Source of the DNA: Heloderma charlesbogerti
Lineage: Eukaryota; Chordata; Lepidosauria; Squamata; Helodermatidae
Direction: 5' to 3'
NCBI GenBank assembly: GCA_026122225.1
Contig: JANEZZ010002062.1
Coordinates: 716,851-780,850, forward strand
Length of the DNA stretch: 64,000 nt
Numbering within the stretch: position 1 is the first letter of the stretch; each line of letters starts with the position of its first letter. The position numbers were made by a program, and so were the translations under genes. The notes under the pieces were generated by a model. The model ran no database searches. It was not told where the DNA came from and saw nothing but the letters and a program-made list of their open reading frames with translations. Shown here piece by piece: positions 4,432 through 63,409 of this stretch.

Positions 4432-5631
4432 TAGGGATGTCAGAGAATTTTGCCACGAATCTCGGGGAGGCCGAATGTCAGCGCATTCGGCCCTCCGAAA
4501 TCGGTGGCGAAACGGTCTGCCCCCCCGCCCCCCCCGGGATGGGACTTACCTTGTGTGAATGTCCGTGGCGGCGGCGGCAGCTCCGGTGACGGTTCGGTGG
4601 CGGTTCGGCGGCAGCGGCGGCTGCAGCGGCCAGTCTTCCGACCGGCTGCCGCCGCCGCCATTTCTAGTAAAAAAAACCCAAAAACCAAAAAAAGTGATAG
4701 GCTATGTAAACATTTACATAGCCTATCACGGCTAGATTAAAAAAAAAAAACCGTGATAGGCTACGTAAATGTTTACGTAGGGATGTCAGAGAATTTCTCC
4801 ACGAATCTCGGGGAGGCCGAATGACAGCGCATTCGGCCCCCCGAAATTGGTGGAGAAACAGTCTGCCCCCCGCCCCCCCTGGGACGGGACTTACCTCGTG
4901 CGAATGTCCCTGGCGGTGGCGGCTCTGGCGGCGGTTCGGCGGCGGTTCGGCGGTGGCAGTTTGGCGGCCGGTCTTCCGACCGGCCGCCGCCATTTCCAAG
5001 TTAAAAAACAAAACAAAACAAAAAAAGTGATAGGCTACGTAAAGATTTACATAGCCTATCATGGCTAGATTTAAAAAAAAATCCTCCTGTCCTGCCGGGA
5101 TGCAAATGGCGGCAGCCGTAGCCTCCGCCATTTGCGTCCCTGCAGTCAGCCGTGATAGGCTACGTAAATCTTTACGTAGCCTATCACGGCTGAGTGGGGG
5201 GAAAAAAAACCCATCGTACGCAAATGGCGGCGCCCATGGGCGCTGTCATTTGCATTCCTTATTTTGGCACGTCTAGTCTACGTAAACATTTACGTAGACT
5301 ACGGCGAAAATAAGGGGAACGCTATTTGCGTACGCGCTGTTTTTTTTTTTTTTTTTACTCAGCTGTGATAGGCTCCGTAAACATTTGCGTAGCCTATCAT
5401 GGCTGATTGCAGGGACGCAAACGGCGGCGGCTACCGTCGCCGCCATTTGCGTTCCCAGCCAGCCAGGATTTGCTGCGGGAGGGACAGGGCGCCTGCCCCC
5501 TGGCCAGAATTTCGGGGGGGGAGGGACGGGGCGCCTCCCCCCCAGCCAGAATTTCGGGGGGAGGGACGGAGCGCCTCCCCCCCACCGTGAATCAAATTTT
5601 GGGCAAGTTAAGTGACTTTCGTACATCCCTA
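4432..5631 (-). mobile_element. E1: palindrome-rich hAT-like element, double left end
   Basis: Starts TAGGGATGTCAGAGAATTT and ends GACTTTCGTACATCCCTA. The 8-bp target duplication CTCCCACC is perfect (4424-4431, 5632-5639). The left ('B') terminus is present twice: at 4432 and again at 4778, where the second TAGGGATGTC directly follows a half palindrome ending tttacg. The interior holds palindromes centred near 4710, 5046, 5170, 5288 and 5384 of the ataggctacgtaaa/tttacgtagcctat type, alternating with cgcaaatggcggc hairpins. Non-coding; strand is given as A-end to B-end. Confidence 0.9.
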
Positions 5632-5639
5632 CTCCCACC

Positions 5640-7148
5640 TTTGCTGAGGCTGGGGATGAAGACGCCTGGCTTTGTGGCTGTGCCTCAAAATGGAGTCAGT
5701 ACTGTTCACTCAAAAGAGAGCGACTTTGTAACAGGAGCCAGTAAATAATCAAAGAATTTAACTATGGAAAGTGGCATAGCTAATTCTATACCTGTAGGGA
5801 ACTTTGGCAAGAGGGGAGGATCTCAAATAAACAGAATCGTGGTGAACATGCTGTCACAGCATGTCTTGGCTACAGTGCTTGGCTAATTCTGACGTATGAT
5901 TGGGCTAATATGAACTTTTCCATAGCCAAGACTTTAATGTCAGGGATGTAAGGATGTTTACCAGGAAGAGCCTAGGGAAAAAGCAGTCTTAGCATACACA
6001 TTGGAATTGTTGATTTTAAGCTGGAATGGAAACAAAATAACCATCACTATGTCTGCCTTTGTGTGGCATCCTGGAAAATCCAGCACAAATCCAATCTCTA
6101 ATTAATAACTTTTAGTTAATGCTACCTTAACATTTTCCCCCAGATAATCTCCTTTCTGAGATCCACTGACTGATTTTAATCTCTTGTGTATACAAAAACC
6201 AGAAGGCAAACATCAAAACAGGACAGAAAGTGGAAAGAGATTGTATCTAAGATGCCAATGGGGAAAAAAGTATTTATTATCATTGCATCTCGGAACAAAG
6301 AGCTCTTTTGTCATGGACAGTCTAAATTACAGGATCAGGCAGAGCCAGCTTCCAAAATGGTGGCTATTTCTCTTCCACCAGTGCATTGATCTGGGGTCTT
6401 GATTCTGTTAGGGCCCAGTCAAAACAGATTCTTTTAGATGACCAGGATGAAACAAAGCCACTTGTGCAAAAGGATGACAGTTGGTTGATAGAAAATAGAT
6501 GCAGAATAAATATGCAAAGAAAGCTCACACCTCTCATGAGCCCATGAAGCTGTCACAGTGGGGTGTCTGTTTGGGTCCCTCAGACAGATGAGAAGTCATC
6601 CCTAGAGGCACAAGTTTATCCAGGCTGGTAATGTGCTTTCCCCCATGGAGTGAGAATGGAGGCCAAAACTAGACTGCTTGATTTTATAGGTTTCTCTCAG
6701 GAGCTGACAGGGAACACCTCTCCCCCTTCTCAGAAGAAGTGGGGGTGGCTGGGTGGGTGGCTTAGGCTTGCTTCTCACAGGAAATGCAACTTATCTCTGC
6801 TCAAGCAGGGTGAGGTAACCAGCTGGCAAGAACAGCTCGAAGGTGAGGCTGTAAATTACTGGCCTGTATGAGAGGCCCACTTAATCTACTATAAAGCTGC
6901 TGTTTAGGCCAAACTGTACAAGTCTCTAGGCGGCTACCAACAGCATATAGGAGTGTTGTGAAGTCCACCTTATTGCTCACCAACGAACTCACTACAACCC
7001 TCATGGTCAATTTTTGATTGGCACCTTTGAGAATATGTTCTCTTTTCACATGTATACACTGAACTGCCTCCAAACCAGGGGGTTCTATTCTGATGATAGT
7101 TCTGTACTCCATGAATGTTTCCTGTCCCCCTTTAAAGCAATCTAGCAG
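5640..7148. other. No recognisable feature
   Basis: About 1.5 kb of AT-rich sequence without a recognisable coding domain, terminal inverted repeat or known repeat. The stretch near 6480-6530 loosely resembles 18805-18840 (gaaaatagatgcagaataaa / gaaaatggatgcagagaaa), so an old LTR remnant is possible. Confidence 0.35.
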
Positions 7149-7231
7149 TGCAATCCTATGCATGCCTACTCAGAAGTATGTCCCATTGAGTTCAGTGAAC
7201 CTTGCTCCCAGGTAAGTGGGTATAGGCTTGC
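7149..7231. mobile_element. Short MITE ('gcaatcctatgcatgcctactcag')
   Basis: The element opens with gtgcaatcctatgcatg and closes with an inverted gtataggcttgcagcc. Between them lie the inverted motifs tactcagaagtatgtccc and tgctcccaggtaagt. This short palindromic repeat is very common in squamate genomes (from memory). No clear target duplication could be assigned. Confidence 0.55.
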
Positions 7232-7780
7232 AGCCTTGGCCATCTAAAACTACATACTGGGCCAGTGAATTCCAGTTCTGCCTTGTGTGAAAAACTCCTC
7301 CAAAGTTTGGTGAGGTAGGATGTCTCTCTTTGCAGAAACCATGCTGATTCATGCTCAGCCAGGCTTGTTCTTCAGTATGCTTAATAACACATTCCACTCA
7401 TTTACTTTGGACATAATTTAGGCAAACCTTCCTGTGTCTTCTCTGGATCCTTTTTAAAAATCAGCTCTGGTTTCTTTTCAGTCCTCTGGTGAGGAGGCCA
7501 ATTGTAGCAACAAGCTACATAATGTTGTTATAACAGTAGTTACTCATTGAAGTTCTTTAGGAGTTGCTAGGTGTATACTGGGAGTGTACACAAATGACCT
7601 CTTGAAATTCTCCACCCTACTTGTGGGCAGAGAAATTAGGGGGAAAATTTCACTGAGTTTCTCCAGTGGGAGGAGAAATTATCCAATGATTTCTCATAGG
7701 TAGGTCACACCACTAGCAAGAGGCCTCCCCTTGTCAGAGGCCCCTTCCTGGCTCTGCACATGTTTTACCAGAAGAGCCAG
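7232..7780. other. No recognisable feature
   Basis: Nothing supportable was seen beyond low-complexity T-rich patches. Confidence 0.35.
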
Positions 7781-7783
7781 TTA

Positions 7784-7919: not shown

Positions 7920-7945
7920 TTAGTATCCCAGGTACCTGGTGCCAT

Positions 7946-8842
7946 TAGGGATGTACGAAAGTCACTTACCTTTCCGCGGATTATGTTGATGGTGGGGGGG
8001 GGGAGGCGTTCTGTCCCTCCCACTGGAATCCTCGACGGGGGGGGAGGCGATCTGTTCCTCCCCCCCGGAATCCTCCATGGCCGGCTGTGCTCCGTGGCAG
8101 CTCCGCGGAGCAGCTGGCCAGGCCCAGCCCAGCCCAGAGCCGTCCGCAGCCAGATTTCCAGCCGCGGAGGGCTCTGGGGGGAAAAAAAACAACAACCCAC
8201 GTATGCAAATGGCAGTGGCTACGGCTGCCACCATTTGCGTTCCTTATTTTTGGCCGTCTTAATCTACGTAAATATTTATGTAGACTATGATGGCAAAAAT
8301 AAAGGGGAACGCAAATAGCGTAGCGGGCGCTATTTGCATCCCTTTTTGATTCACCGTTTTAGCGTACGTAAATATTTACGTAGGCTAAAACGGCAAATCA
8401 GGAAGGGACACAAATAGCGCCTGCTACGCTATTTGCGTTCCCCTTTATTTTCCCTGTCATAGTCTATGTAAATATTTACGTAGACTAAGACGGCCAAAAA
8501 TAAGGAACGCAAATGGCGGCTGTAGCCGCTGCCATTTCCGTAAGCGGTTTTTTTTTTTTTTAAACCCAGCCATGATAGGCTACGTAAATCTTTACGTAGC
8601 CTATCACATCTTTTTTTTTTTTTTACAAGACTGCAAATGGCAGTGGAGGCAGCCGGTCGGAAGACCAGCCGCCGCCGCCGCCGCTGCTGAAGCCGCCACT
8701 GGAGCCGCCGCCACTGGAGCCACCGCCACCTGGAAGATCCGCCCCAGGTAAGTCTCGTCCCGGGGGGGGGATCCGCAGGGGGGCGGGGGGTGGCAGGCCG
8801 TTCCACCACTGAGATCTGTGGCGGAATTCTCTGCCATCCCTA
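7946..8842 (+). mobile_element. E2: palindrome-rich hAT-like element (A to B)
   Basis: The A end is TAGGGATGTACGAAAGTCACTTACC and the B end is gcggaattctctgCCATCCCTA. The centre carries palindromes near 8272, 8373, 8476 and 8590, with caaatagcg-type hairpins between them. A GC-rich domain (8000-8190) follows the A end. Unlike its relatives, the flanks (GGTGCCAT, ATCATGGT) do not form a direct repeat. Confidence 0.85.
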
Positions 8843-8894
8843 ATCATGGTATAATTTTCCTGTGGGACCTGGGAACAAGCATGCCCCAACCCCG

Positions 8895-10611: not shown

Positions 10612-11287
10612 TAGGGATGGCGGAGAATTCCGCCACAGATTTCAGTGAGGCCAAATGCACTGGCACTGGCTACGTAAGTATTTACGTAGCCTATCACGGC
10701 AAGCCAAGCACCCCCCCCAAAATGGCGTACGCAAATGGCGGCGTCTACGGCGGCCGCCATTTGCGTTCCCTATTTTTCGCCGTTTTAGCTAACGTAAATA
10801 TTTACATAGGCTATTACGGTGAGAAAAAAAAGGAACGCAAATAGTGCCCACTATGCTATTTGCATTCCCCTTTTTCCCCCACCGTAATAGCCTACGTAAA
10901 TATTTACGTAAGCTAAAATGTCGAAAAATAGGGAACTCAAATGGCGGCCGCCATAGCCACTGCCATTTGCATACACTGTTTTTTTTTTTTTGCCCAGCCA
11001 TGATAAGCTATGTAAATAATTACGTAGCCTATCACAGCTGCCTGGCTGGATGCAAATGGCGGCCGCTATGGCGGCCGCCATTTGTGTCCGCAGCAGCCCG
11101 TCCGCAGCTGGAGCTCCAGCTGCGGACGGGCCTGGCCGGCTGCAGAGCAAAGCCAGCCGGGCAGGATTCCAGGGGGGAGGACCGGATCGCCTCCCCCCCG
11201 TCGAGGATTCCGGGGGGAGGGATGGAGCGCCTCCCCCCCACCGCGAACACAATCCGCGAAGAGGTAAGTGACTTTCATACATCCCTA
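10612..11287 (-). mobile_element. E3: palindrome-rich hAT-like element (B to A)
   Basis: Starts TAGGGATGGCGGAGAATTCCG and ends GACTTTCATACATCCCTA. The target duplication AACTTAAC is perfect (10604-10611, 11288-11295). Palindromes lie near 10680, 10800, 10900 and 11018, alternating with cgcaaatggcggc and caaatagtgcc hairpins. A GC-rich A-end domain occupies 11090-11260. AGGTAAGT (about 11262) faces outward next to the A end. The element interrupts a LINE frame. Confidence 0.92.
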
Positions 11288-11631: not shown

Positions 11632-12469
11632 TAGGGATGTACAAAAGTCACTTACCATTTCACGGATTTGCTTCGCGGTGGGGGGGGAGGTGCTCTGTCC
11701 CTCCCGCCGGAATCCTCGATGGGGGGGGGAGGCACTCCACCTCTCCCCCCAGAGTCCTGTCTGGCTGGCTCCGCTCCGCGGAGATTCCGCGGAGCCACTG
11801 GCCGGCTCCACCCGCAGCTGGACATCCGGCTGCTGGGCAGCAGGGACGCAAATGGCGGCGGCTGTAGCCACCACCGTTTGTGTCCCTGTACTTAACCGTG
11901 ATAGGCTACGTAAATATTTACGTAGCCTATCACGGCAAAGTAAAAAAAAACGCGTATACAAATGGCGGCGGCTATGGTGGCCGCCATTTGCGTTCACTAT
12001 TTTTCGCCGTTTTGCCTATGTAAAAATTTACGTAGGCTAGAACAGCGAAAAATAGCGAACGCAAATGGCAGCTGCTGTAGCTGCCGCCATTTGCGTACGC
12101 TGCGCCTGGCCGTGGCTGGCCAGGAGACAAGCCGCCGCTGCTGCACCTGCCGCCACCACAGTACCCGCCGCGGCTGCACCCGCCGCGGCCGCTGCACCTG
12201 CCACCGCTGTACCTGCCGCCGCACCCGCCGCTGAATCTACTGCTGCTGCCGCACCTGCCACCGCCACTGCACCTGCCGCCGCCAAATCCGCTGCCACCAC
12301 TGGAGCCGCCGCCACCACCGCATCTGCTGCATCCGCCCCAGGAAAGTGCCATCCCGGGGGATTCTGCGGGGGGGGGGGCAGGAGGCCATTCTGCCATGGA
12401 TTCCAGGGGGCCGGATTCTACAGAATTCAGCCTCACTGGAATCCATGGCGGAATCCTCTGCCATCCCTA
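11632..12469 (+). mobile_element. E4: palindrome-rich hAT-like element (A to B)
   Basis: Starts TAGGGATGTACAAAAGTCACTTACC and ends gcggaatcctctgCCATCCCTA. The target duplication TCAGAAAC is perfect (11624-11631, 12470-12477). Palindromes lie near 11917 and 12025. The B-side domain (12120-12330) is expanded into a GC-rich tract of gccgccgc/gctgcacct triplets. That tract gives long Ala- or Gly-rich open frames on both strands, which I regard as artefacts of composition. Confidence 0.92.
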
Positions 12470-15637: not shown

Positions 15638-16256
15638 TAGGGATGTACGGATTCCCCACAGTCCATTCTGGTGGGAATCTGCTGGGGCGGGAGGAGGCGA
15701 TCCATTCCTCCCCCCCCCCCGCAGAATCCCCTGGAGCAGCTCTGCTCTGCGAGGATTCCTCAGAGCTGCCTGGCTTGAAGGGCACTTACCTGGTCCATCC
15801 TGGACCCATTCACCTCTGCGCCAATTGCCATGTTGCTTAAAAATGGGGGCCTTTTCTGTGGTGGCCCCCACTCTGTGGAACTCCCTCCCTAGGGAACTCC
15901 ACCATGCCCCCTCTTTAATGAGCTTCCACCGTGCATTAAAAACGTGGTTGTTCAGACAGGCATTTGGGGTGGGTTAGGGTATTTTAGAAAATGTTTTTAT
16001 TGTAGAATTTTATTGTTTAAAACTTTTTATTATATGCTGTACTTCGCCCAGAGTGGCTGGGTGACAAGCCAGATGGGTGATTAATAAATTTAATAAATAA
16101 AATAAAATAAAAATAAAAAATAAAAAATGGCAATCAGCAGGATGTGCCCACAGACTTATACGAAAAATAGAGCTGTGAATCTTGCGTATAAGTCTATGGA
16201 CACATTTTTTTTAAAAAAAATGGCGATTGGCACGGAGGCGAACGGCTCCGGTTAAG
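15638..16256 (+). mobile_element. E5: hAT-like element, E19 subfamily, 3'-truncated
   Basis: Starts TAGGGATGTACGGATTCCCC. It contains the 'gacttatacgaaaaatagagc...gaatcttgcgtataagtc' palindrome (16150-16195) and the 'attcacctctgcgccaat' and 'gcacggaggcgaacgg' segments shared with E19. No right terminus was found after about 16256, where LINE sequence resumes, so the right end is deleted. A LINE tail is inserted within it. Confidence 0.75.
15847..16122 (+). mobile_element. L2-like LINE 3' fragment inside E5
   Basis: Begins with the 'ccttttctgtggtggcccccactctgtggaactccctcc' coding end and closes with 'cgcccagagtggctgg...' plus an (aaataa)n tail. It matches the minus strand of 55080-55310. A short direct repeat resembling AAAAATGG flanks it, which is consistent with retrotransposition of a short 5'-truncated copy. 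Confidence 0.75.
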
Positions 16257-21764: not shown

Positions 21765-22493
21765 TAGGGATGTACGAAAGTTCCGCCACGGATCTCAGGG
21801 AGGCCGAATGCCAGCGCATTCGGCCCCCCGAAATCAGTGGTGGAATGGCCTGCCCCCCCCGGGATGGGACTTACCTTGGGCGGATCTTCCTGGTGGTGGC
21901 AGTTCGGCGGCGGCGGCTGCGGCGGCTGGTCTTCCAACCAGCTGCCGCCGCCGCCATTTCCAGGTTAAAAACACAAAAAACCCCCACAAAAAAAGTGATA
22001 GGCTACGTAAAGATTTACGTAGCCTATCACGGCTAGATTTAAAAAAAACACCGTGATAGGCTACGTAAATCTTTACGTAGCCTATCACGGCTGACTTAAA
22101 AAAACAAAAACAAAAACACGCATGTACGCAAATGGCAGCGGCCATGGCCGCCGCCATTTGCGTACGTGCATTTTTTTTAAAAAAATCAGCCATGATAGGC
22201 TATGTAAACATTTACGTAGCCTATCACGGCTGACTACAGGGACGCAAATGGCAGCGGCTACGGCCGCCGCCATTTGCGTCCCTGCTAGCCAGCGGCCGGA
22301 TGTCCGGCTGCTGGCGGAGCCGGCTGGCGGCTCCGCAGAATCGCTGCGGAGCACAGCCGGCTGGCCAGGATTCTGGGGGGGGGGAGGAACGGAGCGCCTC
22401 CCCCCCAGGCGAGGATTCCGGGGGGAGGGATGGAACGCCTCCCCCCCCCATCAGCATAATCCCCGAAAGGTAAGTGATTTTCGTACATCCCTA
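21765..22493 (-). mobile_element. E6: palindrome-rich hAT-like element with exchanged terminus
   Basis: Starts TAGGGATGTACGAAAGT, then switches at once to B-type sequence (tccgccacggatctcagg). Ends gattttcgtACATCCCTA. The target duplication ATGCTGGC is perfect (21757-21764, 22494-22501). Palindromes lie near 22014, 22070, 22157 (caaatggcagcgg type), 22210 and 22262. The terminal 17 bp are nearly perfect inverted repeats. Outward AGGTAAGT-type sites lie at both ends (acttacc at 21868, aggtaagt at 22469). Confidence 0.93.
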
Positions 22494-24701: not shown

Positions 24702-25257
24702 TGCCGGGAGAGTCCTAGCTGCCTCTTACAGTCCCCTCCAATAGCCAACTCAAGACACAGATGAAAAGGATTCTTTTCAAGGCTTTATTCCTTTTACAAC
24801 TTAATGACTCTTTCAGATGCTAATCTCCAGCGACTAAGCAAGGAACAGCACTGGGGAAAGATAGCATAGTCGCCTATGCTCCAGGTTAGGCAGTTGGTCC
24901 CCGTTTGAAGGAGAATCACGGGAAGACTCTGAACTTATGGGCTAGGGAGAGATCCTCCCTCTTTCCCTTGGGTCCTCGGGACGTGACCGTTGCTTGTGTG
25001 CCAAATGAGTGCTACGCCTCCTTTCCGCGCCCTCCATCTGTCGTCGCTCCCTGTGTCGGCGCCGAGCATCCAGCAAGCTCCCCTCCAGCACTCTCTCACT
25101 GCCAGGGTCACTATCTCCCCCAGGAATGCTGGCAGGAGGAATCTCTGCCAGCTGCTGTGCCTGTGAGAGGTGAGCGCGCTCCTCTCCCACGGATTGCTGT
25201 TCCTCCTCAGAATCAGAACTGCTCTGGAGTTCTATCGGCTCAGTTTCCACCCTGACA
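24702..25257 (-). repeat. 3' LTR of the gypsy element
   Basis: 556 bp, matching 32225-32780. On the minus strand it starts TGTCAGGGTGG. It ends with a CTCTCCCGGCA that corresponds to CTCCTGACA in the partner. A minus-strand AATAAAG signal (ctttatt near 24783) lies in the shared part. Confidence 0.92.
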
Positions 25258-26292: not shown

Positions 26293-27276
26293 TAGGGGTG
26301 GACGAAAGTCACTTACCTGTCCTCGAAGCTTGTTCGTGGTGGGGGGGAGGCGCTTTGCTGCTCCCCCCGCGAAGTTCAGGCCGGGTGGGGGAGGCTTCCC
26401 GCCTCGCCCGGCCGAAATTCAGGCCGGGGGGGAGGCTTCCCGCCTCGCCCGGCCAAAATTCAGGCCGGGGAGGAAGCGCCTCGCCTCGCCCGGCTGCGAA
26501 CTCAAAAGTTTTTTTTTTTTTTTAAATGCCCCCATGATAGGCTACGTGACGATTAACGTAGCCTATCATGGCTAGATCTGCACAGTCAGCCGTGATAGGC
26601 TACGTTAATCATCAGGTAGCCTATCACGGGTGACTTTAGGAAAAAAAAAAAGTGCGTACGTAAATGGCGGCCCCCATAGGGAGCCGCCATTCGTGTTCCT
26701 TATTTGGTCGCTGTAGTCTACGTAAATCTTTACGTAGACTACGGCGAAAATAAGGGCAACGCAAATAGCGTTGCCCTTATTTTCGCCGTAGTCTACGTAA
26801 AGATTTACGTAGACTACAGCGACCAAATAAGGAACGGGAATGGCGGCTCCCTATTGGGGCCGCCATTATCCGTACGCGCTTTTTAAATTTTTTTTTAAAG
26901 TCACCCGTGATAGGCTACGTGACGATTTACGTAGCCTATCACGGCTGACTGTGCAGATCTAGCCATGATAGGCTACGTTAATCGTCACGTAGCCTATCAT
27001 GGGGGCGTTTTTGTTTTTTTTTCTTTGATTGCAATGGCGGCGGCGGCAGCCGGTCGAAAGATCGGCTGCCACCCCCACCCCAGACGAACACCCGCCGAAC
27101 TGCCGGCCGGACCCGCCGCCGGGAGGGACATTCGGCAAAGGTAAGTCCCGTCCCGGGGGGGGGTGCGGGGGGCAGGGGGGGGTGCGGAGAATTTCTCCCC
27201 GAAACTTGTTCGGGGGGCCGAACACGTTGGCGCCCGCCCCCCCGAAGTTTCGGGGAGAAATTCTCCGCCATCCCTA
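26293..27276 (+). mobile_element. E8: hAT-like element whose core is one giant palindrome
   Basis: Starts TAGGGGTGGACGAAAGTCACTTACC and ends gagaaattctccgCCATCCCTA. The target duplication CATGTGAG is perfect (26285-26292, 27277-27284) and the element sits in the gypsy integrase frame. The A side (26340-26500) is a 60-bp GC-rich unit repeated about three times (cgcctcgcccggccaaaattcagg). The B side (27020-27276) ends in a hairpin of about 90 bp (gagaatttctcc...ggagaaattctc). Outward AGGTAAGT-type sites lie at about 26312 and 27138. Confidence 0.93.
26529..27001. repeat. 473-bp palindrome composed of smaller palindromes
   Basis: The centre is at about 26765 (gggcaacgc-aaata-gcgttgccc). Moving outward, each side carries in mirror order an agtctacgtaaa palindrome, a ggcggc hairpin, a ggctacgtgacga/ggctacgttaat palindrome, the spacer cagatctagc or its complement, and a second ataggctacg palindrome. 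Arm identity is high by eye. Confidence 0.9.
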
Positions 27277-31293: not shown

Positions 31294-31389
31294 TAGCAGA
31301 TGGGAGGGTGGGGGGGTTGCGGAAGGTACCCACCTGGTGTGGAATTGACCCCCACACTGGAGACCCCCAACAGGCTTGGGGGGGGCAGC

Positions 31390-35392: not shown

Positions 35393-36023
35393 TAGGGATG
35401 TTAGAGAATTCCACCACAGACTCCAGCGAGGCCAGATTCTAAAGAAGTTCTGCCATGGGCTCCCCTGGAGTCCATGGCGGAACAGAGCAATCCCCCCTGC
35501 CACCCCGCGGAATCCCCCTGGGACGGAGCCTACCTTTGTCAGCTGTCCGCTGCCCCATGAATGGCTGCCTCAGTCTGCAGCTGCCATTTCCTCCTCTCTA
35601 TTTTAGCTGTGATAGGCTACGTAAGTATTTACGTAGCCTATCACGGCTAATGCAGGGATGCCATTTGCGTCCATGCCTTTTTCCATGATAGGCTACATAA
35701 ATATTTACGTAGCCTATCATGGCTAACACAGGGATGCAAATGGCATAGCGGCCGCCATTTGTGTTCCTGCCTTTTGCTGTGATAGGCTATGTAAATATAT
35801 ACATAGCCTATCACGGCTACCGCAGGGACACAAATGGTGGCCGCTACAGTGCCACAGCCCAGCAGCAGACAGAAGTCCGACTGCGGGCGGCCTGGCCAGC
35901 AGCTCTGCGGGCTCCCAGTGGAGCAGAACTGGCTGGGGAGGATTCTGGGGGGGAGGAACGGATCGCCTCCCACCCCCAGCGGATGGCCCCAGTGGAACAG
36001 GGTAAGTAATCTGTACACCTGTA
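35393..36023 (-). mobile_element. E10: palindrome-rich hAT-like element (B to A)
   Basis: Starts TAGGGATGTTAGAGAATTCC and ends with a worn ctgtacacctGTA. Flanks GAGCAGCA (35385-35392) and GAGCAGAA (36024-36031) differ at one base. Palindromes lie near 35628, 35703, 35745, 35800 and 35840. This copy interrupts a duplicated host segment (compare 58.5-58.7 kb). Confidence 0.88.
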
Positions 36024-38657: not shown

Positions 38658-38668
38658 TATGTAATTCA

Positions 38669-39566: not shown

Positions 39567-40827
39567 TAGGGATGTACGAAAGTCACTTACCTTTTCGCGG
39601 AATTGATTCGCGGTGGGGGGGAGGTGCTCCGTCCCTCCCCCTGGAATTCTCGATGGGGTGGGAGGCGATCCAGTCCTCCCCCCGGAATCCTTCCTGGCCA
39701 GCTCCGGACTTCTGACCGCGGATGGGCTGCTGCGGACGCAAATGGCAGCTGCCGTAGCGGCTGCCATTTGCGTCCAGCCAGGCTGCCATGATAGGCTACA
39801 TAGGTATTTATGTAGCCTATCACGGATGGGCAAAAAACAAACAAACAAACAGCGTACGCAAATGGCAGCGGCTACGGCAGCTGCCATTTGCATTCCCTAT
39901 TTTTTGTCGTTTTAGCCTATGTAAATATTTACGTAGGTTATTACTGCGAAAGAAAAGGGGGATGCAAATAGCGTAGTGGGCGCTATTTGCGTTCCTTTTC
40001 CCCCCGCCATTTTATCTTACATAAATATTTACGTAGGCTAAAATGGCGAAAAAAAGGAATGCAAATAGCGCCCACTACGCTATTTGCATCCCCCCTTTTT
40101 TTTCTGTAATAGCCTATGTAAATATTTACATAGGCTAAAACGGCGAAAAATTGGGAACTCAAATGGCGGCTGCTGTAGCCGCCGCCATTTGCGTACGCCG
40201 TTTTTGTTTGTTTGTTTGTTTGGCTTGCCGTGATAGACTACGTAAATACTTACGTAGCCTATCACGGCAAAGGTAAAATGGTAAAGGTGTTCCCAGCCAG
40301 TCGTGTCCGACTCTAGGGTGTGGTGCTCATCTCCATTTCTAAGCTGAAAAGCCAGCGCTGTCCAAAAACGCTTCCGTGGTCATGTGGCCGGCATGACTGA
40401 ACACCGAGGTGCACGGAACGCTGTTACCTTTCCCGCCAAAGCAGTACCTATTTATTTACTTGCAATTTCTTGCTTTCAAACTGCTAGGTTGGCAGGAGCT
40501 GGGACTGAAGATGGGAGCTCACTCCGTCACGCGGCACTCGGGTCTCGAACTGCTGTCCTGCCGACCTTCTGGTCTGCAGTTCAGCATCTTAACCACTAAG
40601 CCACCGCGGCAAAGACCAGGATGCAAATGGTGGTCTTGGCAGCCGGTCAAAAGACCAGCCACTGGAGCCGCTGCCGTCCGGAACATCTGCCCCAGGTAAG
40701 CTTTGTCCCAGGGGGAATCCGCGGGGGGACGGGGGGTGGCAGGCCATTCCGCCACAGATTTCAGGGGGCCGAATGCCAGTGCATTTGGCCTCACTGAAAT
40801 CCGTGGTGGAATTCTCTGCCATCCCTA
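39567..40827 (+). mobile_element. E12: palindrome-rich hAT-like element carrying a SINE
   Basis: Starts TAGGGATGTACGAAAGTCACTTACC and ends gtggaattctctgCCATCCCTA. The target duplication GTCTGCCT is perfect (39559-39566, 40828-40835). Palindromes lie near 39810, 39925, 40030, 40122 and 40245, alternating with cgcaaatggcagc and caaatagcgccc hairpins. A reversed SINE (40273-40607) sits between the last palindrome and the B-end domain. Longest member of the family here. Confidence 0.93.
40273..40607 (-). mobile_element. Sauria-SINE-like SINE inside E12, antisense
   Basis: Reverse complement of the SINE type at 38324-38657, from 'ggtaaaggtgttcccagccagtcgtgtccgactct' to 'cttaaccactaagccaccgc'. GGCAAAG occurs on both sides (40266-40272, 40608-40614) and is the likely target duplication. 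Confidence 0.88.
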
Positions 40828-43128: not shown

Positions 43129-43841
43129 TAGGGATGTACGAAATATACTTACCTTTCTGCGGATTATGTTTATGGTGTGCGGGGGAGGCGTTCCGTCCCT
43201 CCCCCCGGAATCCTCGACGGGGGGGAGGCAACCTGTTCCTCCCCCCCGGAATCCTCGATGGCCGGCTGTGCTCCACGGCGGCTCTGCGGAGCAGCCGGCC
43301 AGGCCCGGGCCAGAGCCGTCTGCAGCCGGATTTCCGGCCGCGGAGGGCTCTGGGTAAAAAAAACCCCCAAAACCCAACCGTGTACACAAATGGCGGCGGC
43401 TACGGCCGCTACCATTTGCGTTCCTTATTTCTGGCCATCTTAGTCTACGTAAATATTTACGTAGACTATGACGGCAAAAATAAAGGGGAACGCAAATAGC
43501 GCCCACCACGCTATTTGTGTTCCCCTTTATTTTCACCGTAATAGTCTATATAAATATTTACATAGATTAAGACAGCCAAAAATATGGAACGTAAATGGCG
43601 GCGGCTGTAGCCGCCACCATTTGCATACGCGTTTTTTTTTTTAACCCAGCTGTGATAGGCTATGTAAATCTTTACGTAGCCTATCACGTCCCTGTAAAAA
43701 AAAAAAACCCTCCAGACTGCAAATGTAAGTCTCGTCCTGGGGGGGATCCACGGGGGGGCGTTCCACCACAGATTTCGGGGGGCCGAATGCACTGGCATTC
43801 GGCCTCACCGAGATCCATGGCAGAATTCTCTGACATCCCTA
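43129..43841 (+). mobile_element. E13: palindrome-rich hAT-like element (A to B)
   Basis: Starts TAGGGATGTACGAAATATACTTACC and ends gcagaattctctgACATCCCTA. Flanks CCGCAAAG (43121-43128) and CTGCAAAG (43842-43849) differ at one base. The core is symmetric about 43505 (caaatagcgcccaccacgctattt), with agtctacgtaaatatttacgtagact-type palindromes on either side and ggcggcggc hairpins further out. The B-side domain is shortened. Confidence 0.92.
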
Positions 43842-43949: not shown

Positions 43950-45250
43950 AGTGCTTTCCTAAATAGGAGTTAGGAGATTTTCTTTCTAGTACTCTTTCCC
44001 AAATATATTTCAGTTTTGCTATTGACCATGTGCTTCAGGAAGAAAGAAGGCGGTGTACAACTAATTTCTGTCTAATTTTATTAGGAGTAGCCTACATTTT
44101 TCTGCAGAGTGATCTAATCGTATTATCTAATCATATTATCTGAACCAACTAAAAGTGACAACAGCACTGTATATTCTTCTCCAGCCGTTCCGCATTAACA
44201 AAATATGGTCATTGTGGATAGGGATGCCAGAGAATTCCGCTACGGACTCCAGTGAGAATTCTGCCCCGGAATCCATGGCGGAACGGGCCCCCACCCCCCC
44301 ATGGAATCCTCCCAGGATGGAGCTTACCTGGGGCGGATGCGGCGGTGGCTCTGGTGGCTCCGGCTGGTCTCCCGGCCGGCTGCTGCCGGGCTGCTGCGGC
44401 CGCAAATGGCGGCTGTCGTAGTGGCCACCATTTGCGCCCCTGCTCTTTGCTGTGATAGGCTACGTAAGTATTTATGTAGCCTATCACGGTAAAGGCAGCC
44501 ACACAAATAGCGGCCGCTACACCATTTGCGTGGTTACCTTTACTGTGATAGGCTACGTAAATACTTATATAGCCTATCACGGCAAAGAGCAGGGGTGCAA
44601 ATGTTGTAGCGGCCGCCATTTGCGTCCCTGCTCTTTGCCGTGATAAGCTATGTAAATACTTATGTAGCCTATCATGGCTGCCCGCAAGGACGCAAATGGT
44701 GGCCACTACGATGGTCGCCATTTGCAACCGCAGCAGCCTGGCCGCGGCCGGAACTCCAGCTGTGGCCGGCTGCAGCTGGTGGCTCTGCGGAGCCGACTGG
44801 GGAGGATTCTGGGGGGGGAGGGTCGGATTGCCTCCCCCTCCACCGTGGACTGCCGGCTGGAATGGGGTAAGTGTTTTGCACACCCCTAATTGTGGGTTTC
44901 ACTTTGGCTGGTTGCCAGTGAGGCCGGTGAGATCTCCAGAGTCAAAGAAGAATGTTGGTGTCCAGAAGTGCACTACCAGGAGAGATCGAAGTTCATTGGC
45001 ATAAAATTTGTGCAAAGGGATTCTTTGTAGAGGATTCACCACTTGTCTTGCCTGTTTCACAGAAGCCTTTGAACCTATAATGACACACAAAACCTCAAAA
45101 CTGTATTGGTTCAAAACTGAATTAACTCCAGTTCTTTTTTTGACCTTAGTGTAACTCATGCTTCACTTGTTCCCAGCATTGTCAAAAGAATGCCTGTGTT
45201 TGCTGGCACTGGGTGGGGTTATTACCCTTCCCCCCTTTCGTTCTAGAATC
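43950..45250 (-). repeat. Duplicated host segment S, distal part (paralogous to 59.64-60.2 kb)
   Basis: Blocks such as 'gattttctttctagtactctttccc', 'tctaattttattaggag', 'ccgttccgcattaacaa', 'ggttgccagtgaggccggtgagatctcca' and 'tgtattggttcaaaactgaatta' recur in the same order and orientation at 59640-60130. The last of them recurs again at 47340-47480. E14 interrupts this copy only. On the minus strand the segment follows the signal-peptide exon at 46.03 kb and contains AATAAAA (about 44082), so it may be the 3' part of an old gene copy. Confidence 0.65.
44219..44888 (-). mobile_element. E14: palindrome-rich hAT-like element (B to A)
   Basis: Starts TAGGGATGCCAGAGAATTCCG and ends gttttgcACACCCCTA. 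Flanks ATTGTGGA (44211-44218) and ATTGTGGG (44889-44896) differ at one base. The paralogous site at about 59930 (attattgtgagg) lacks the element. Palindromes lie near 44470, 44562 and 44660, alternating with caaatggcggc-type hairpins. Confidence 0.92.
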
Positions 45251-45350: not shown

Positions 45351-45646
45351 TAGGGATGTACAAAACACTTACCTGGTTTTGTCCAGGGACATCCATGGTG
45401 GGGGAAGGCGTTCCGTCCCTCCCCCCAAAATCCTCCCTGGCCAGCCCTGCTCCGCAGCAACTCCACAGAGCCGCTGGCCGGGGCCTTCCGCAGCCGGAGA
45501 TCCGGCCACTGCTGGGCTGCGCAGGGACGCAAATGGCGGCCACCATAGCCGCTGCCATTTGCGTCCCTGTCTTTTGCCGTGATGGGCTACGTATATATTT
45601 ACATAGCCTATCATTGCAAAAGGCAGGAATGCAAATGGCGGCCGCG
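45351..45646 (+). mobile_element. E15: hAT-like element, only the A half
   Basis: Starts TAGGGATGTACAAAACACTTACC and has the usual GC-rich A domain, a caaatggcggccacc hairpin (45530-45570) and a palindrome near 45600. It stops abruptly inside the next hairpin at about 45646. No B end or target duplication was found, so the rest is deleted. Confidence 0.8.
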
Positions 45647-45973
45647 ACAATCACATGGGGCAGGAGGACCTACCCTAGCAGAATGTCTTGTGCCTCACCA
45701 GGATGAATTTCCTGGATGCATCCCTGCAGTCATAGCTACGCCTCTCTGTTCCCAGCCTATGCCCCTCTCCAGATACTGACCTGGTTGGCACAATTACAGG
45801 GTGGTTAACAAGCCATGATGGCTTGTTAACCATCTGCAATCATGAGAACCAAGTCACTGCCCAACTGAAACTCTAAATGATGAAAATTAGTACGGCCATC
45901 ACAGCAAAGCCAGGAATACCATGGCTGTTATCGACTGAGGAGCCAGAGATGAGTTGATCGCAACGGGACTCAC

Positions 45974-48158: not shown

Positions 48159-49100
48159 TAGGGATGTACGAAAGTGACTTACCTTTCTGTGGATTATGTT
48201 GATGGTGGGGGGGAGGCGTTCCGTCCCTCCCCCCAGAATCCTCGCCGGGGGGGGAGGTGCTCCATTCCTCCCCCCCGGAATCCTGGCCGGCCGGCTGTGC
48301 TCCGCAGTGATTCTGCAGAGCCACCGGCCGGCTCCGCCAGCAGCCGGACATCCGGCCACTGGCTAGCAGGGACGCAAATGGCGGTGGCCATAGCCTCCCC
48401 CGTTTGCATCCCTGCAGTCAGCTGTGATAGGCTACGTAAATGTTTACGTAGCCTATCACAGCTGATTTAAAAACAAAACAAAACGCGCGTACGCAAATGG
48501 CAGTGGCCATGGCCACCACCATTTGTGTTCTTTATTTTGGCACATCTTAGTCTACATAAACATTTACGTAGACTAAGACGGTGAAAATAAGGGGAACGCA
48601 AATAGCATAGTGTCTACACTATTTGCGTCCCCCTTATTTTCGCGATCTTAGTCTACGTAAACGTTTACGTAGACTAAGACGTGCCAAAATAAGGAACGCA
48701 AATGGCGGTGGCCATGGCCGCCGCCATTTGCGTACGCGCATTTTGTTTTGTTTTTTTAAGTCAGCCATGATAGGCTACGTAAAGATTTACGTAGCCTATC
48801 ATGGTTTTTTAAAAAAATCTAGCTGTGATAGGCTACGTAAATCTTTACGTAGCCTATCATGTTTTTTTGTTTTGTTTTTTTTAACCTGGAAATGGTGGCG
48901 GCGGCAGCTGGTTGGAAGACCGGCAGCCGCCGCCCCCCCCCCGCGGCCTCACCGCCAGAGCTGCCGCTGCCAGGAAGATCCGCCCAAGGTAAGTCCCATC
49001 CCAGGGGGGTGGCGGGCCGTTCCGCCACCAATTTCGGGGGGCCGAATGCCAGCGCATTCGGCCTCCCCTAGATCCGTGGTGGAACTTTCGTACATCCCTA
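48159..49100 (+). mobile_element. E16: palindrome-rich hAT-like element, matched termini
   Basis: Starts TAGGGATGTACGAAAGTGACTTACC and ends ccgtggtggaactttcgtACATCCCTA, so the last 17 bp at each end are perfect inverted repeats. The target duplication GTCCTGAA is perfect (48151-48158, 49101-49108). The core is symmetric about 48611 (caaatagcatagtg/cactatttgcg), with palindromes at about 48450, 48560, 48660, 48790 and 48842. The B end carries the gccgaatgccagcgcattcggc hairpin. Confidence 0.94.
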
Positions 49101-55040: not shown

Positions 55041-58000
55041 TGACAGATTTATTTATTTTTATTAGTTAATTAAATTTATTAATCGCCCATCTGGCTGGTT
55101 ACCCAGTCACTCTGGGCGATGTACAAAGTATATAATAAAACAGTTTAAAACAATAAAATTCTACAGTAAAAACATTTTCTAAAATACCCTAACCCACCCC
55201 AAATGCCTGCCTGAACAATCACATTTTTAATGCACAGTGGAAGCTCATTAAAGAGGGAGCATGGTGGAGTTCCTAGGGAGGGAGTTCCACAGAGTGGAGG
55301 CCACCACAGAAAAGGCCCTCTCCCTTGTCCCCACCAGTCTTGCTGTCCTGGCTGATGGGACAGAGAGAAGGCCATCCGAGGCTGATCTTGTTAAGCGGCC
55401 TGTCTGGTGTTGCTGGAGGCGCTCCTTGAGATAGGCTGGGCCGGAACTGCATAGGGTTTTAAAGATCAAAACCAACACCTTGAATTTGGCCCGGAAAACA
55501 ACTGGTAACTAGTGCAGCTCCTTCAGCACTGCAGTGATGTGATCTTGCTGGTGGCTGCCTTTAATCAGGTGAGCCACCCGTTCTGTACAAGCTGCAGCTT
55601 CCGAACCATCTTCAAGGGTAACCCCACGTAATGCGCATTACAGTAGTCTAAACGAGAGGAGGCCAGGGCATGTACTACCAGGGATGTACAAAAGTCACTT
55701 ACCTTTTCGCGGATTCTGTTTGGGGTGGGGGGGGCGCTCCATCCCTCCCCCCGGAATCCTCGATGGGGGGGAGGCGATCTGGTCCTTCCCCCCGGAATCC
55801 TGCCCAGCTGGCTCTGCTCTGCGGCAGCTCCGTGGAGCAGCTGGCCAGGGCCGTCCGCAGCTGGAATGGACGCAAATGGCGGCCGCTGTAGGGGCCACCA
55901 TTTGCATCCAGCCAGGCTGCCGTGATAGGCTACGTAAGTATTTACATAGCCTATCACGGCAAGCCAATAAAACCCCCCACAAAAAAATGGCGTACGCAAA
56001 TGGTGGCGGCTTCGGCGGCTGCCATTTGCGTTCCCTATTATTCACCGTTTTAGTCTACGTAAATATTTACGTAGGCTAAAACAGCAAAAAAAAAAAAAAA
56101 AGGAACGCAAACAGCGCCCACTACGCTATTTGCGTTCCCCTTTTTTTCACCATAATAGTCTATGTAAATATTTACGTAGACCAAAATGGCGAAAAATAGG
56201 GAACGCAAATGGAGGCCCCTGTAGCCGCCACCATTTGCGTATGCTGTTTTTGTTTTTTGTTTTGCTTGGCTTGCTGTGATTGGCTACGTAAATACTTATG
56301 TAGCCTATCACGGTAAAGACTAGGATGACAATGGCGGCTGTGGCAGCCGGTCGAAAGACCAGCCGCTGCCGCCGCCGGACCCGCCGCCGGACCTGCCGCT
56401 GCCCGGCACATCTGCCCCAGGTAAGCCTCGTCCCGGGGGGAATCCGCGGGGGGGCGGAGGGGCAGGCCGTTCCGCCACGGATTTCGTGGGGCTGAATGCC
56501 AGTGCATTCGGCCTCACTGAAATCCGTGGCGGAATTATCCGCCATCCCTATTTACTACCGATGGGAGCAGATGGTCCGGAAGGTAGGGGTGCAGCTGCTG
56601 TATCAGATGGAGTTGATACAGCACTGTCCCGCTCACAGCCGACACCTGAGCCACCATGGACAGCTGGGAGTCCAAAATGACCCCCAGGCTGCAGACCTGG
56701 TCTTTCAAGGGTAGCCATACCCCATTCAACACCAGGTCAACATCCCCCAACCTCCTCTTATCTCCCACCAAAAGTACCTCGGTCTTGTCAGCGTTCAGCT
56801 TCAGCTTATTCCTCCCCATCCAGCCACTCACCGTCTCCAGACATTTAGACAGGGATTCTATGGACAACCTTGGTGAAGATCTGAATGAGAGGTAGAGCTG
56901 CATGTCATCCACATATTGATGACACCGCACCCCAAACCTCCTGATGATAGCCCCCAGCGGCTTCACATAGATGTTAAATAGCATCAGGGAGAGGATGGAA
57001 CCCTGTGGCACCCCACAAGTGAGCGGGGTGTCATGAATATGTGACATTGCATCACATCAATATGTGACATTGTGAAACCCCATCTCCCAGTGCTACCCCC
57101 GGTACCTGCTGGAGAGGAAGGAATGGAACCACCGCAATACGGTGTCTCCAATGCCCAACCCCTCCAGGCGGTCCAGGAGGATGCCGTGGTCAATGGTATC
57201 AAAAGCCTCTGAGAGGTCAAGGAGAACAAGGAAGGAGCATTCACCCCTAACCAGAGCCCTCCTCATATCATCCACCAAGGTGACCAAGGCCATTTCTGTC
57301 CCATGCCCAGGCCTGAAGCCCAACTGAAATGGGTCTAGATAATCGGCTTCTTCCAAGTGTGCTTTCAACTGCATCGCCACCACCCGCTCAATCACCTTGC
57401 CCCAAAATGGCAGATTCAAGACTGGATGAAAGTTGTTCAGAACTTGGGGATCCAAGGAGGGCTTCTATAAGAGTGGTCTTATCACTGCCTCTTTGAGGGC
57501 TGATGGCATCACTCCCTCTTCAAGGGAGGCATTCACTACTGCCCTGATCCCCTTACCCAGTCTCTCTCTGCAGCCCATAATGAGCCAAGATGGGCAAGGA
57601 TCAAGTAAGCAGCTGGTTGGCCTTACAGATGACAGCACCTTGTCCACTTCATCAGAAGGAAGAAGCTGGAATCGATCCCACAAAACTGGTTTGCCACAGG
57701 CCGCCTTTTGCTCACTAACTGTATCCACAGCGCATGGAATAACACTCCTAATCTAATCAATTTTATCTGCAAAGCGCCTTGCCAAGGCCTCACAGGAAGC
57801 CTTAGAATGCTCCAGTGGTTCCGGAGCCACAGGACCGACCAGGCTCCGGACCACTTGGAACAGCCTCCTGGGACAGCACTCTGCAGACGCGATAGAGGCA
57901 GCATAATATTCCTTTTTTGCTGCCTTCACCGCCACGTGATAGGCTGATGATACAGCTCTAGCTTGCTTCCAATCATCTCCGGAGCAAGACTTCCGCCACT

Positions 58001-58708: not shown

Positions 58709-58716
58709 GTGTTGAC

Positions 58717-59399
58717 TAGGGATGTACAAAACACCTACCTTGCTCCGCGCTGGGCAATCTGCAGTGGGGGGGAGGTGCTCCGTCCCTCCCCCCAGAATCC
58801 TCGACGGGGGGGGGAGGCGATCCTGTCCTTCCCCCCAGAATCCTGCCCAGCCTGCTCCGCTCTGCGGCCAAGCCACGGAGCTGCCGGCTGGCTCCAGCTG
58901 CTGGACAGCCCTGCAGGGATGCAAATGGTGGCTGTCGTAGCCGCCGCCATTTGCGTCCCTGTATTGAGCCGTGATAGGCTACGTAAATATTTACGTAGTC
59001 TATCACGGCAGGGGGAAAAAACCCCAGCGTACACAAATGGCTGTAGCCGCCACCATTTGCGTATGCTGGGTTTTCCCCCCCTGCCGTGATAGGCTACGTA
59101 AATACTTACGTAGCCTATCACAGCCTCCGCAGGGACGCAAATGGCGTCCCTGCATTAGCCGTGATAGGCTACGTAAGTATTTACGTAGCCTATCACGGCT
59201 ATGAAGACGAAGTGAATGGCGGCCGCAGGACAGCTACCATTCGCAAAGCAGCGCAGACGGGAGCAGGTAAGTGCTCCATTTCGTGCACCTTCTGTGGGTT
59301 GGGGGGGCGGGGGCTTCGTTCCGTGATGGATTTCGGCGGGCCGAATTCACTGGCATTCGGCCTCACCGAGATCCATCGCGGAATTCTCTGATATCCCTA
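58717..59399 (+). mobile_element. E18: palindrome-rich hAT-like element (A to B)
   Basis: Starts TAGGGATGTACAAAACACCTACC and ends gcggaattctctgATATCCCTA. The target duplication GTGTTGAC is perfect (58709-58716, 59400-59407). Palindromes lie near 58990, 59105 and 59182, with caaatggcggc hairpins between. The B end keeps the hairpin ccgaattcactggcattcgg. Confidence 0.93.
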
Positions 59400-60690: not shown

Positions 60691-60691
60691 C

Positions 60692-60762: not shown

Positions 60763-60769
60763 AGTTGGG

Positions 60770-62284: not shown

Positions 62285-62345
62285 CTGCATTTGCCAAGAC
62301 CAAGGCAAAGCATGCAAGGGGCAGAGAGATGCACAGTGTCTTCAT
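62285..62345 (-). CDS. First exon (signal peptide) of a small secreted protein, open
   Basis: ATG at 62345 opens a 20-codon frame (MKTLCISLPL...ALVLANA) ending in a phase-1 donor, GCAG/GTCAGT, at 62285/62284. The peptide has a Lys after Met, a hydrophobic core with two Cys, and an A-N-A end typical of a signal-peptidase site. The leader 'cagtgaccacctggaagcc' and the GATTGG box upstream (about 62465) are shared with the copy at 23179. This is the only one of three copies without a break. The mature protein is unknown because later exons were not identified. It could also be a relic whose later exons are gone. Confidence 0.5.
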
Positions 62346-62529
62346 CTCCTCAGAGTTACAGGCCTTGGAGGCTTCCAGGTGGTCACTGCAGCTGGACAAC
62401 AGATGGGATGTGTCACTGAGCTCCTTGCTGCTCTTTGGAGTTTACAAAGTCAACAAGGACCAATCACAATGAATGAAAGTGTCAGGAACTCAGGAATGAA
62501 CTCAGAACATCCTAATTATGGAGGAATCA

Positions 62530-62650
62530 TCTGATACACAAACAAGTTCAGACAGAAAAATCTGGGAAATGTTTCTTTTTGGCATGTGCCAAAACATATT
62601 TGCTGAACATTTGCTTCTTACCATCCAGGATATGATTTGTGACTGGATCC
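62530..62650 (-). repeat. Duplicated host segment Q, distal flank (paralogous to 24.50-24.61 kb)
   Basis: The minus strand reads 'cagtcacaaatcatatcctggatggtaagaagcaaatgttcagcaaatatg' and 'gaacttgtttgtgtatcagatgattcc', matching 24510-24608, where E7 was inserted at '...gtatcaga'. Confidence 0.8.
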
Positions 62651-62815
62651 TTGAGGGTTCAGTACCTACATAATTTTTTCAAAGTGTGGAAACTTTTGAA
62701 ACGACGAAGGAGAACCCGCATGTGATGGGGATTGTGGAGGGAGATTCCAGCATAGAGGCCACTGGTTTCATAGGGACTGGAGGCTAGAGAGAGCACCTGA
62801 CTCCTTTGTTACAAC

Positions 62816-63409
62816 TAGGGATGTCAGATAAATCTGCTGTGGATTCAAATGAGGCCAGAGTCTTTGGAATCTGGCCTCCAGAATCTGCGGTGGGATGGCT
62901 CCACTTACCTCCACCCCAGGAGGATTCTGTCTGGAATGGCACTTGGCTTGAGGCCTTAACCGGACCTGTTCACCTCTGCGCCAATCGACATTTTTCTTTA
63001 AAAAATGGTGATCGGCAGGATGTGCCCATAGACTTATATGCAAAATAGAGCCGTGAATCTTGCATATAAGTCTACCTGTCCATAGATCGTTCCAGTCTCC
63101 CCTTCCCATTCCAGGCCAGCTACGTGGGGGCAGCAGCTTGACAAGACTCTTGACAAGACTCTTGATTCATGGCTCTATTTTGCGTATAAGTCTATGGGCA
63201 CATCCTGCCGATCACCATTTTTTAAAGAAAATGGCGATCAGTGCAGAGGTGAATGGGCTAGGTAAGCCTCCCTCATGCCAGGTGGCTCCATGGAATCCTT
63301 GTGGAGGGGATCCACTCCGGAGGATTCTGGGGGGGGGGGAGGAGGAACAGATCCCCCCCCCGGGCAGATTCCCGACCAGAATGGAAGGTGGGGAATCTGT
63401 ACATCCCTA
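62816..63409. mobile_element. E19: hAT-like element of a second palindrome type
   Basis: Starts TAGGGATGTCAGATAAATC and ends ggggaatctgtACATCCCTA. The target duplication GTTACAAC is perfect (62808-62815, 63410-63417). The core is an inverted repeat: 'aaaaatggtgatcggcaggatgtgcccatagacttatatgc' at about 63000-63040 returns reversed at 63180-63235. Each arm is linked to a hairpin of agacttata/tataagtct. It has the same GC-rich end domains and outward AGGTAAG-type sites (62907, 63262) as the other members but no tacgtaaa palindromes. Confidence 0.92.

What the first reader, a model, noticed from the sequence alone, without database searches (positions are those of the whole stretch)
4432..63409. 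A hAT-like non-autonomous family built from strings of palindromes (19 copies in 64 kb)
Nineteen elements share TAGGGATGT...ACATCCCTA ends. Twelve have perfect 8-bp target duplications and four have one mismatch (E10, E13, E14, E17). This supports hAT-type transposition. The interior is unusual: 4-9 tandem 35-60 bp palindromes of two alternating classes (TACGTAAATATTTACGTA-centred, and CAAATGGCGGC/CAAATAGCG hairpins) between two different GC-rich end domains. No copy encodes a transposase. I do not recall a named family with this architecture.
Basis: partly seen in the sequence, partly recalled or inferred. Interest (0 to 1): 0.88.

Follow-up and report, generated by a model that had tools for sequence, protein, structure and literature searches.

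The report
Palindrome-of-palindromes hAT element with outward splice donors
This genome holds tens of thousands of copies of a jumping-DNA family whose core is a large mirror-image sequence built of small ones, with halves that have stayed alike from one branch of the family to the next, and whose two ends carry outward-pointing sequences that match splice-donor signals and would likely let the element splice into neighbouring DNA.

Summary
Six empty sites, gap-free at the join, support precise insertion; target duplications favour T2 and A7, as in Hermes. An exact 15-base tip occurs 52,724 times genome-wide (control 10).

(1) The 35-65 bp palindromes lie inside a macro-palindrome of about 230-490 bp in 20 of 22 elements (65-93% identity to its own reverse complement). 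(2) Macro-arms evolve in concert: in a tree of 38 arms left and right mix (12 changes, at least 7 forced; AU p 6e-29 against one left clade). CpG decay inside small palindromes is independent between arms, so symmetry is set in source copies. (3) Ends carry a consensus 5' splice site pointing outward (49 of 66 ends at 8/9 or better; inward 1 of 66); 32,121 of 52,724 exact tips keep its 8-base core at fixed spacing.

Arm-to-arm copying and splicing are inferred. The autonomous partner was not identified; no expression data existed; Repbase and Dfam could not be searched.

The parts
4432..5631 (-). element, TSD CTCCCACC perfect; looks compound (second B-type end inside at 4778)
7946..8842 (+). 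element with both ends, flanking 8-mers unlike; macro-palindrome 8183-8561 (85%)
10612..11287 (-). element, TSD AACTTAAC perfect
11632..12469 (+). element, TSD TCAGAAAC perfect
15638..16256 (+). partial copy of an older subfamily, interrupted; outward donor sequence 152 bp from tip
21765..22493 (-). element, TSD ATGCTGGC perfect; A-type tip on both ends
26293..27276 (+). element, TSD CATGTGAG perfect
26524..27010 (.). macro-palindrome of the 26293 element (491 aligned columns, 93.3% to its own reverse complement)
28737..29755 (-). compound copy inserted in a Gypsy-type pol gene; inner B-type end at 28973
32869..33105 (.). truncated core fragment
35393..36023 (-). copy with a degraded right end (3 mismatches), duplication GAGCAGCA/GAGCAGAA
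36831..37690 (+). element, TSD CTCTCAGG perfect; macro-palindrome 37015-37440 (88%)
39567..40827 (+). element, TSD GTCTGCCT perfect; carries a nested SINE-like repeat at 40274-40608
39585..39593 (-). A-end 5' splice-site sequence AAG|GTAAGT, outward, boundary 24 bp from tip
39784..40269 (.). macro-palindrome of the 39567 element (85%)
40693..40701 (+). B-end 5' splice-site sequence CAG|GTAAGC, outward, boundary 132 bp from tip
43129..43841 (+). element, TSD CCGCAAAG/CTGCAAAG
44219..44888 (-). element, TSD ATTGTGGA/ATTGTGGG
45351..45648 (+). partial copy, left end only; outward donor sequence 22 bp from tip
48159..49100 (+). element, TSD GTCCTGAA perfect; A-type tip on both ends; macro-palindrome 48425-48801 (88%)
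55679..56550 (+). element, TSD TGTACTAC/TTTACTAC
58717..59399 (+). element, TSD GTGTTGAC perfect; no macro-palindrome match over 220 bp
62816..63409 (-). element of an older subfamily, TSD GTTACAAC perfect
62969..63253 (.). macro-palindrome of the 62816 element, with a core unlike the other elements' (75.8%)

Best explanation
It is a non-autonomous transposon family with hAT-type insertion marks, in tens of thousands of copies, whose palindromic core is likely re-made by copying one arm onto the other when new subfamilies arise, and whose two ends carry outward-facing 5' splice-site sequences that would let transcripts starting in or crossing the element splice into flanking DNA. SHOWN: 8-bp duplications, empty sites, copy number, the hierarchical palindrome, mixing of left and right macro-arms on their tree, and conservation of the outward donor sequence. 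INFERRED: a hAT transposase made elsewhere in the genome moves the element in trans; the core is copied by template switching between its arms (in gap repair after excision or at replication), which regenerates symmetry in a source copy; that copy then multiplies, and its dead descendants decay independently in the two arms. INFERRED: the donor sequences bind U1 in RNA, so that a transcript leaving the core in either direction ends its element-derived exon there, whichever way the element is inserted.
For: hAT-type: 10 perfect + 3 one-mismatch 8-bp duplications in the window; 6 of 8 spanning empty-site matches gap-free at the join, of 26 queries; nested copies in hAT genes with matching duplications (L045, L037); of 26 target duplications 24 have T2 or A7 (7 both) and none is nnnTAnnn (Hermes nTnnnnAn and TcBuster nnnTAnnn from passages of PMC10512250). 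Numbers: 15-base tip 52,724 vs 10 control; class-1 18-mer at 31,410 places vs 4. Macro-palindrome: 22 of 22 elements match their own reverse complement, 20 of 22 over more than 220 bp, 15 of those at 75% or more; 62816 keeps the form with an unlike core. Concert: arms tree, 12 changes, at least 7 forced by starred branches, 0% of 200 bootstrap trees with one, as mixed as shuffled labels (mean 13.0); AU p 6e-29; own arms 82% identical on average, other elements' arms 72%. Class-1 palindromes: same 3-mer in both arms in 79 of 103, shuffled mean 42, maximum 55 of 5000; without the GGC type 23 of 36, mean 13.8, maximum 23; CpG positions +2/+3 match no more than expected. Donor: 26 of 29 A ends, 21 of 31 B ends, 2 of 6 other ends at 8/9 or better outward; inward 0, 1 and 0; 32,121 of 52,724 exact tips carry ACTTACCT at fixed spacing; of 100 listed tips anchored on both sides (1,741 in all) 84 keep it while the three bases before it take at least 11 states (counted by eye).
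Against: No autonomous hAT with these ends was found: 150 of 871 PF05699 candidates were scored and the 3' side of 20 was read over 1.65 kb (0.7 kb for L041); none shows such an end of its own, only nested copies of the element in four. Class-2 palindromes (77) showed no arm covariation, though that test was poorly in register. In 12 of 19 elements the left arm is closer to some other element's arm than to its own partner (own closer in 6, one tie), so any homogenisation is at subfamily level, not per copy. The arm tree rests on 199 of 360 columns, 8 of 35 inner branches are starred, its bootstrap had not settled, and elements with different module numbers may align unlike modules. Five of the 20 macro-palindromes are weak (65-71%). 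No constant reading frame runs into the donor and no constant acceptor precedes it in the five elements scanned. CpGs decay faster than other sites between arms (21.5% vs 7.9% in 10 of the 22 elements), so there is no sign of protection from methylation.
Confidence: 0.6

Rival explanations
1. The conserved ACTTACCT box is a subterminal transposase (BED-domain) site and not a splice donor; it is kept because transposition needs it.
For: Hermes BED domains bind an AAGT-type quasi-palindrome within left-end positions 11-27 (PMC10368747, passages); the common A end has AAGTCACTT at positions 14-22, nearly the same place.
Against: The box is kept when the neighbouring AAGT is lost (states such as GGC, GGT, ATC before it); its boundary lies 22-25 bp from the tip in most A ends but 93-136 bp in B ends; by eye it occurs once per intact end in the elements printed; the exon-side bases stay A/C-A-G in most subtypes although the rest of the flank changes.
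Confidence: 0.25
2. The palindromes are an internal array of transposase binding sites that captures transposase multimers and explains the copy number.
For: hAT transposases use multiple subterminal sites, and a palindromic pair is bound cooperatively in Hermes (passages); the TACGTAA core is nearly invariant apart from CpG decay over 103 palindromes, which were chosen by that core.
Against: In the elements the macro-palindrome begins more than about 130 bp from the A tip; the 62816 subfamily has neither palindrome class yet has a perfect duplication.
Confidence: 0.2
3. The core is a two-way promoter: palindromic factor sites start transcripts both ways and the donors link them to flanking exons.
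For: CpG o/e averages 0.83 in 26 elements against 0.30 in their flanks; symmetric layout with donor sequences on both sides; CAAATGGCGGC resembles YY1 sites (recalled, no call).
Against: CpGs are decaying; no expression data; no gene context tested.
Confidence: 0.15
4. The palindromes are neutral by-products of repeated inverted duplication, kept only because hairpin-rich copies do no harm.
For: Palindromes are often fragile and rearranging (title and start of abstract of PMC7999016); sizes and module numbers vary between copies.
Against: Both arms share subfamily clades in several subfamilies, and 62816 has a palindromic core of unlike sequence, which suggests a drive or selection.
Confidence: 0.25

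Closest known systems
hAT-type MITEs (e.g. mar of Drosophila, PMC3517528, listing and start of abstract only; Ds of maize, recalled)
   Same: 8-bp duplications, short inverted tips, no transposase
   Different: internal hierarchical palindrome with concerted arms; two different GC-rich end domains; copy number far above what I recall for these
maize Ds / Ds1 splice-site-bearing ends (PMC5432752, passages incl. abstract)
   Same: hAT elements that bring splice donors near their termini (Ds1: all sites less than 35 bp from the ends)
   Different: [quoted passage not shown] here one donor sequence per end points outward, the B-end one 93-136 bp in, and no constant acceptor was found
foldback elements and Galileo (PMC4168063, listing and start of abstract only; features recalled)
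   Same: long inverted repeats that fold back
   Different: there the long repeats are the termini; here the palindrome is internal and the tips share only about 9-12 bp
Hermes left-end STR1-STR2 (PMC10368747, passages)
   Same: palindromic pair of short sites beside the tip
   Different: here the palindromes are long, many and internal

Membership tests
hAT superfamily | 8-bp target-site duplication | tested here: met
hAT superfamily | short terminal inverted repeats | tested here: met
   TAGGGATGT/ACATCCCTA
hAT superfamily | Hermes-type target preference nTnnnnAn | tested here: met
   as a preference: T2 60%, A7 60% symmetrised; 24 of 26 have T2 or A7, 7 of 26 both
hAT superfamily | autonomous relative with hAT transposase and the same ends | tested here: inconclusive
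   150 hAT matches scored, 8 with an open frame of exactly 879 aa; their element ends were not reached
MITE / non-autonomous element | short, non-coding, high copy number | tested here: met
   373-1261 bp, one 1764 bp (26 elements); 10 ORFs without Pfam match; 52,724 tips
foldback element | long terminal inverted repeats | tested here: not met
   macro-palindrome internal (e.g. 232-718 of 984), end domains A and B differ
splice-donor-bearing hAT (Ds1-like) | functional splice sites near termini | not testable with these tools
   sequence match only; no RNA data
named Repbase/Dfam family | consensus covering the core | not testable with these tools
   libraries not available

The most novel reading that the evidence does not exclude
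Tens of thousands of copies act as orientation-blind two-way first-exon cassettes: the palindromic core starts transcripts in both directions and the outward donors splice them into whatever lies next door, while arm-to-arm copying keeps the cassette symmetric because only a symmetric element works in either orientation.
Probability: 0.13. Interest if true: 0.88.

Novelty: new variant of a known kind. Interest (0 to 1): 0.62.

Why it matters
Long palindromes are usually unstable, yet here a very successful transposon family appears to keep re-making one. That gives a natural series of subfamilies in which to study how palindromic arms are homogenised. If the outward donors work, the family would offer tens of thousands of ready splice sites next to host sequence, a testable source of new transcripts.

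Tried and rejected
Coding exon ending at the donor: rejected, the open frame into the donor is not constant. Cassette exon with a constant acceptor: not supported in the five elements scanned. Protected CpG island: not supported, CpGs decay. Known structured RNA: no Rfam match in the window at gathering scores. 38325-38659 as a copy: rejected, a repeat also nested in the 39567 element. The conserved GTACATCCCTA...CTACACAC of the hAT genes as their tip: rejected, the same bases follow wherever it was matched exactly; the CATCCCTG about 1.03-1.11 kb into six of the 20 also has near-identical followers in five of the six. Class-2 arm test: no excess, register poor. Finding the autonomous partner: not achieved.

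Left out of counts: the set of 22 elements excludes 3896 (spurious), L013_4554, L016_9569, L028_8379 (short, other cores), L016_3486 and L017_2550 (large or compound) and adds 7946; the arm tree also excludes 62816 (unlike core), 21765 and 58717 (no match over 220 bp). The TSD tally (26) excludes 3896, L028_8379 and L018_5297 and adds two read. The donor scan covers all 29 A and 31 B ends plus 6 chosen of 271 'other' hits, many of which look like chance 8-mers. One search aligned only ends scoring 7 or more with GT required (25 of 31 and 23 of 31), so its constancy is biased upward. The 8-base control block is one subfamily's sequence, so its low count (1,741) is no fair general control. A patterned test of B-end donors genome-wide did not complete. 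In locally fetched DNA, 14 of 21 exact 15-mer tips had the box at fixed spacing, and of 14 B ends picked by a 12-base anchor 9 had CTTACC and 0 the reverse in the donor zone.
Full report
OBSERVATION. The window is the last 64 kb of contig C1837 of a 2.30-Gb assembly. End pairing with an 8-bp duplication test gives 13 complete elements, 10 with perfect and 3 with one-mismatch duplications, against 0.24 expected with shifted flanks (a 14th pair is spurious). Joined-flank queries of 26 elements found 8 with matches spanning the join in other fetched DNA; 6 are gap-free at the join (96.9%, 96.2%, 91.8%, and three at 74-78%), 2 are not. Two copies nested in hAT genes have TSDs AATGTGAG and TTGCTTTC on both sides. 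So these are precise insertions.

SIZE. TAGGGATGT occurs 241,731 times genome-wide against 42,152 for the reversed pattern. The A-type 15-mer TAGGGATGTACGAAA occurs 52,724 times against 10, and the class-1 palindrome TACGTAAATATTTACGTA at 31,410 places against 4. By the window holds 9 exact 15-mers, about one per 7 kb, against one per 44 kb in the genome, so it is a rich patch. Three 10-kb stretches from other contigs held no class-1 palindrome.

ANATOMY. Elements have an A end (TAGGGATGTACGAAAGTCACTTACC..., then G-rich blocks) and a B end (TAGGGATGKCRGAGAATTCC..., then a short palindrome and C-rich blocks); some carry A-type tips on both sides (21765, 48159). Between them lie mostly alternating palindromes: class 1 with an 18-bp TACGTAAANNTTTACGTA core and arm types GGC, GTC, GCC, TCT; class 2 GCAAATGGCGGC or GCAAATAGCG hairpins. 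The order is itself nearly mirror-symmetric in the fuller elements, e.g. 2a-1a-2a-1b-2b-1b-2a-1a-1a. Aligned to their own reverse complement, all 22 elements tested give a match, 20 of them over 220 bp (15 at 75-93%, 5 at 65-71%), the best 93.3% over 491 columns. Folded as RNA, three elements lie 49, 32 and 19 standard deviations below shuffles (20, 20 and 100 shuffles). Element 62816, of an older subfamily with an unlike core, keeps the same form at 75.8%.

CONCERTED ARMS. In 103 class-1 palindromes the 3-mer beside the core is the same in both arms in 79 (shuffled mean 42, maximum 55 of 5000), while CpG positions inside the core agree no more than expected (0.70 vs 0.70; 0.81 vs 0.82). Symmetry is therefore a property of source copies, and dead copies lose it. 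A maximum-likelihood tree of 38 macro-arms from 19 elements mixes left and right (12 changes, at least 7 forced by well-supported branches, as mixed as shuffled labels); holding left arms together costs 274 log-likelihood units (AU p 6e-29). Own arms average 82% identity, other elements' arms 72%; yet in 12 of 19 elements the left arm is closer to some other element's arm than to its own partner, so homogenisation must have happened in subfamily founders. Limits: 199 of 360 columns kept, 8 of 35 inner branches starred, bootstrap not settled, and elements with different module numbers may align unlike modules. The class-2 test showed no excess but was poorly in register. Arm-to-arm copying, by template switching or hairpin-guided repair, is my inference.

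OUTWARD DONORS. Most ends carry a match to MAG|GTRAGT reading out of the element: at 8/9 or better in 26 of 29 A ends, 21 of 31 B ends and 2 of 6 other ends; inward 0, 1 and 0. The boundary lies 22-25 bp from the tip in 23 of those 26 A ends, 110-128 bp in the other three (A-type tip on a B-type end), and 93-136 bp in the 21 B ends. Across aligned ends donor positions -1, +3 and +5 are 91-100% constant (+1 and +2 were required), against 39-87% at the upstream flanking positions -17 to -4; alignment needed a score of 7, so this is biased. Without that bias, 32,121 of 52,724 exact tips carry ACTTACCT at the fixed spacing, and of the 100 listed tips anchored on both sides 84 carry it while the three bases before it take at least 11 states (by eye). 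No constant acceptor (five elements) and no constant reading frame was found, so a coding cassette exon is unlikely. Splicing itself is untested. A transposase site is the main rival: the common A end has AAGTCACTT where Hermes has its STR1-STR2 pair (PMC10368747, passages), but the box persists when AAGT is lost.

PARTNER. PF05699 gives 150 scored matches of 871 candidates, 8 with an open frame of exactly 879 aa, so hAT transposase genes are present. The 3' side of 20 was read: 17 belong to one large family that continues past the fetched part, four of these carry nested copies of our element, and none shows A or B ends of its own.

KNOWN KINDS. It is a hAT-type non-autonomous family by its duplications, tips and target preference (target motifs from PMC10512250, passages). 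Ds1 of maize is the precedent for splice donors near hAT termini (PMC5432752, passages), with a different layout. Nothing in the listings of ten searches points to this family; I read passages of four papers. Subscription papers, Repbase and Dfam were not seen. I rate it a new variant of a known kind.

Noticed in passing
window 28100-31800, - strand: Gypsy-type pol (protease, RT and RNase H pieces by Pfam) interrupted by the compound element at 28737-29755; described only.
   Followed up: partly
window 56535-57464, - strand: LINE-like reverse transcriptase fragments (Pfam RVT_1; 'LINE' is my reading).
   Followed up: partly
window 38325-38659 and 40274-40608: Two copies of a SINE-like repeat (92.5% identical, opposite strands), one nested inside the 39567 element; from memory it resembles a squamate SINE.
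   Followed up: partly
L033, L034, L037, L045: Four of 20 hAT transposase gene copies sampled carry a nested copy of this element in the 3' region; whether the element prefers such genes is untested.
   Followed up: partly
L035, L038, L039, L044, L049, 3' portions: The large hAT family has a long conserved region downstream of the transposase that by eye could encode a second protein on the opposite strand.
   Followed up: no
window 24942-25565, 27720-28229, 32465-32926, - strand: Three ORFs share a peptide of the form V-D/E-TEP...SSD-EEEQ, perhaps pieces of one repeated retroelement.
   Followed up: no
window 4778 and 28973: Internal B-type ends sit directly against a class-1 palindrome half, suggesting joins made at palindrome centres.
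   Followed up: no
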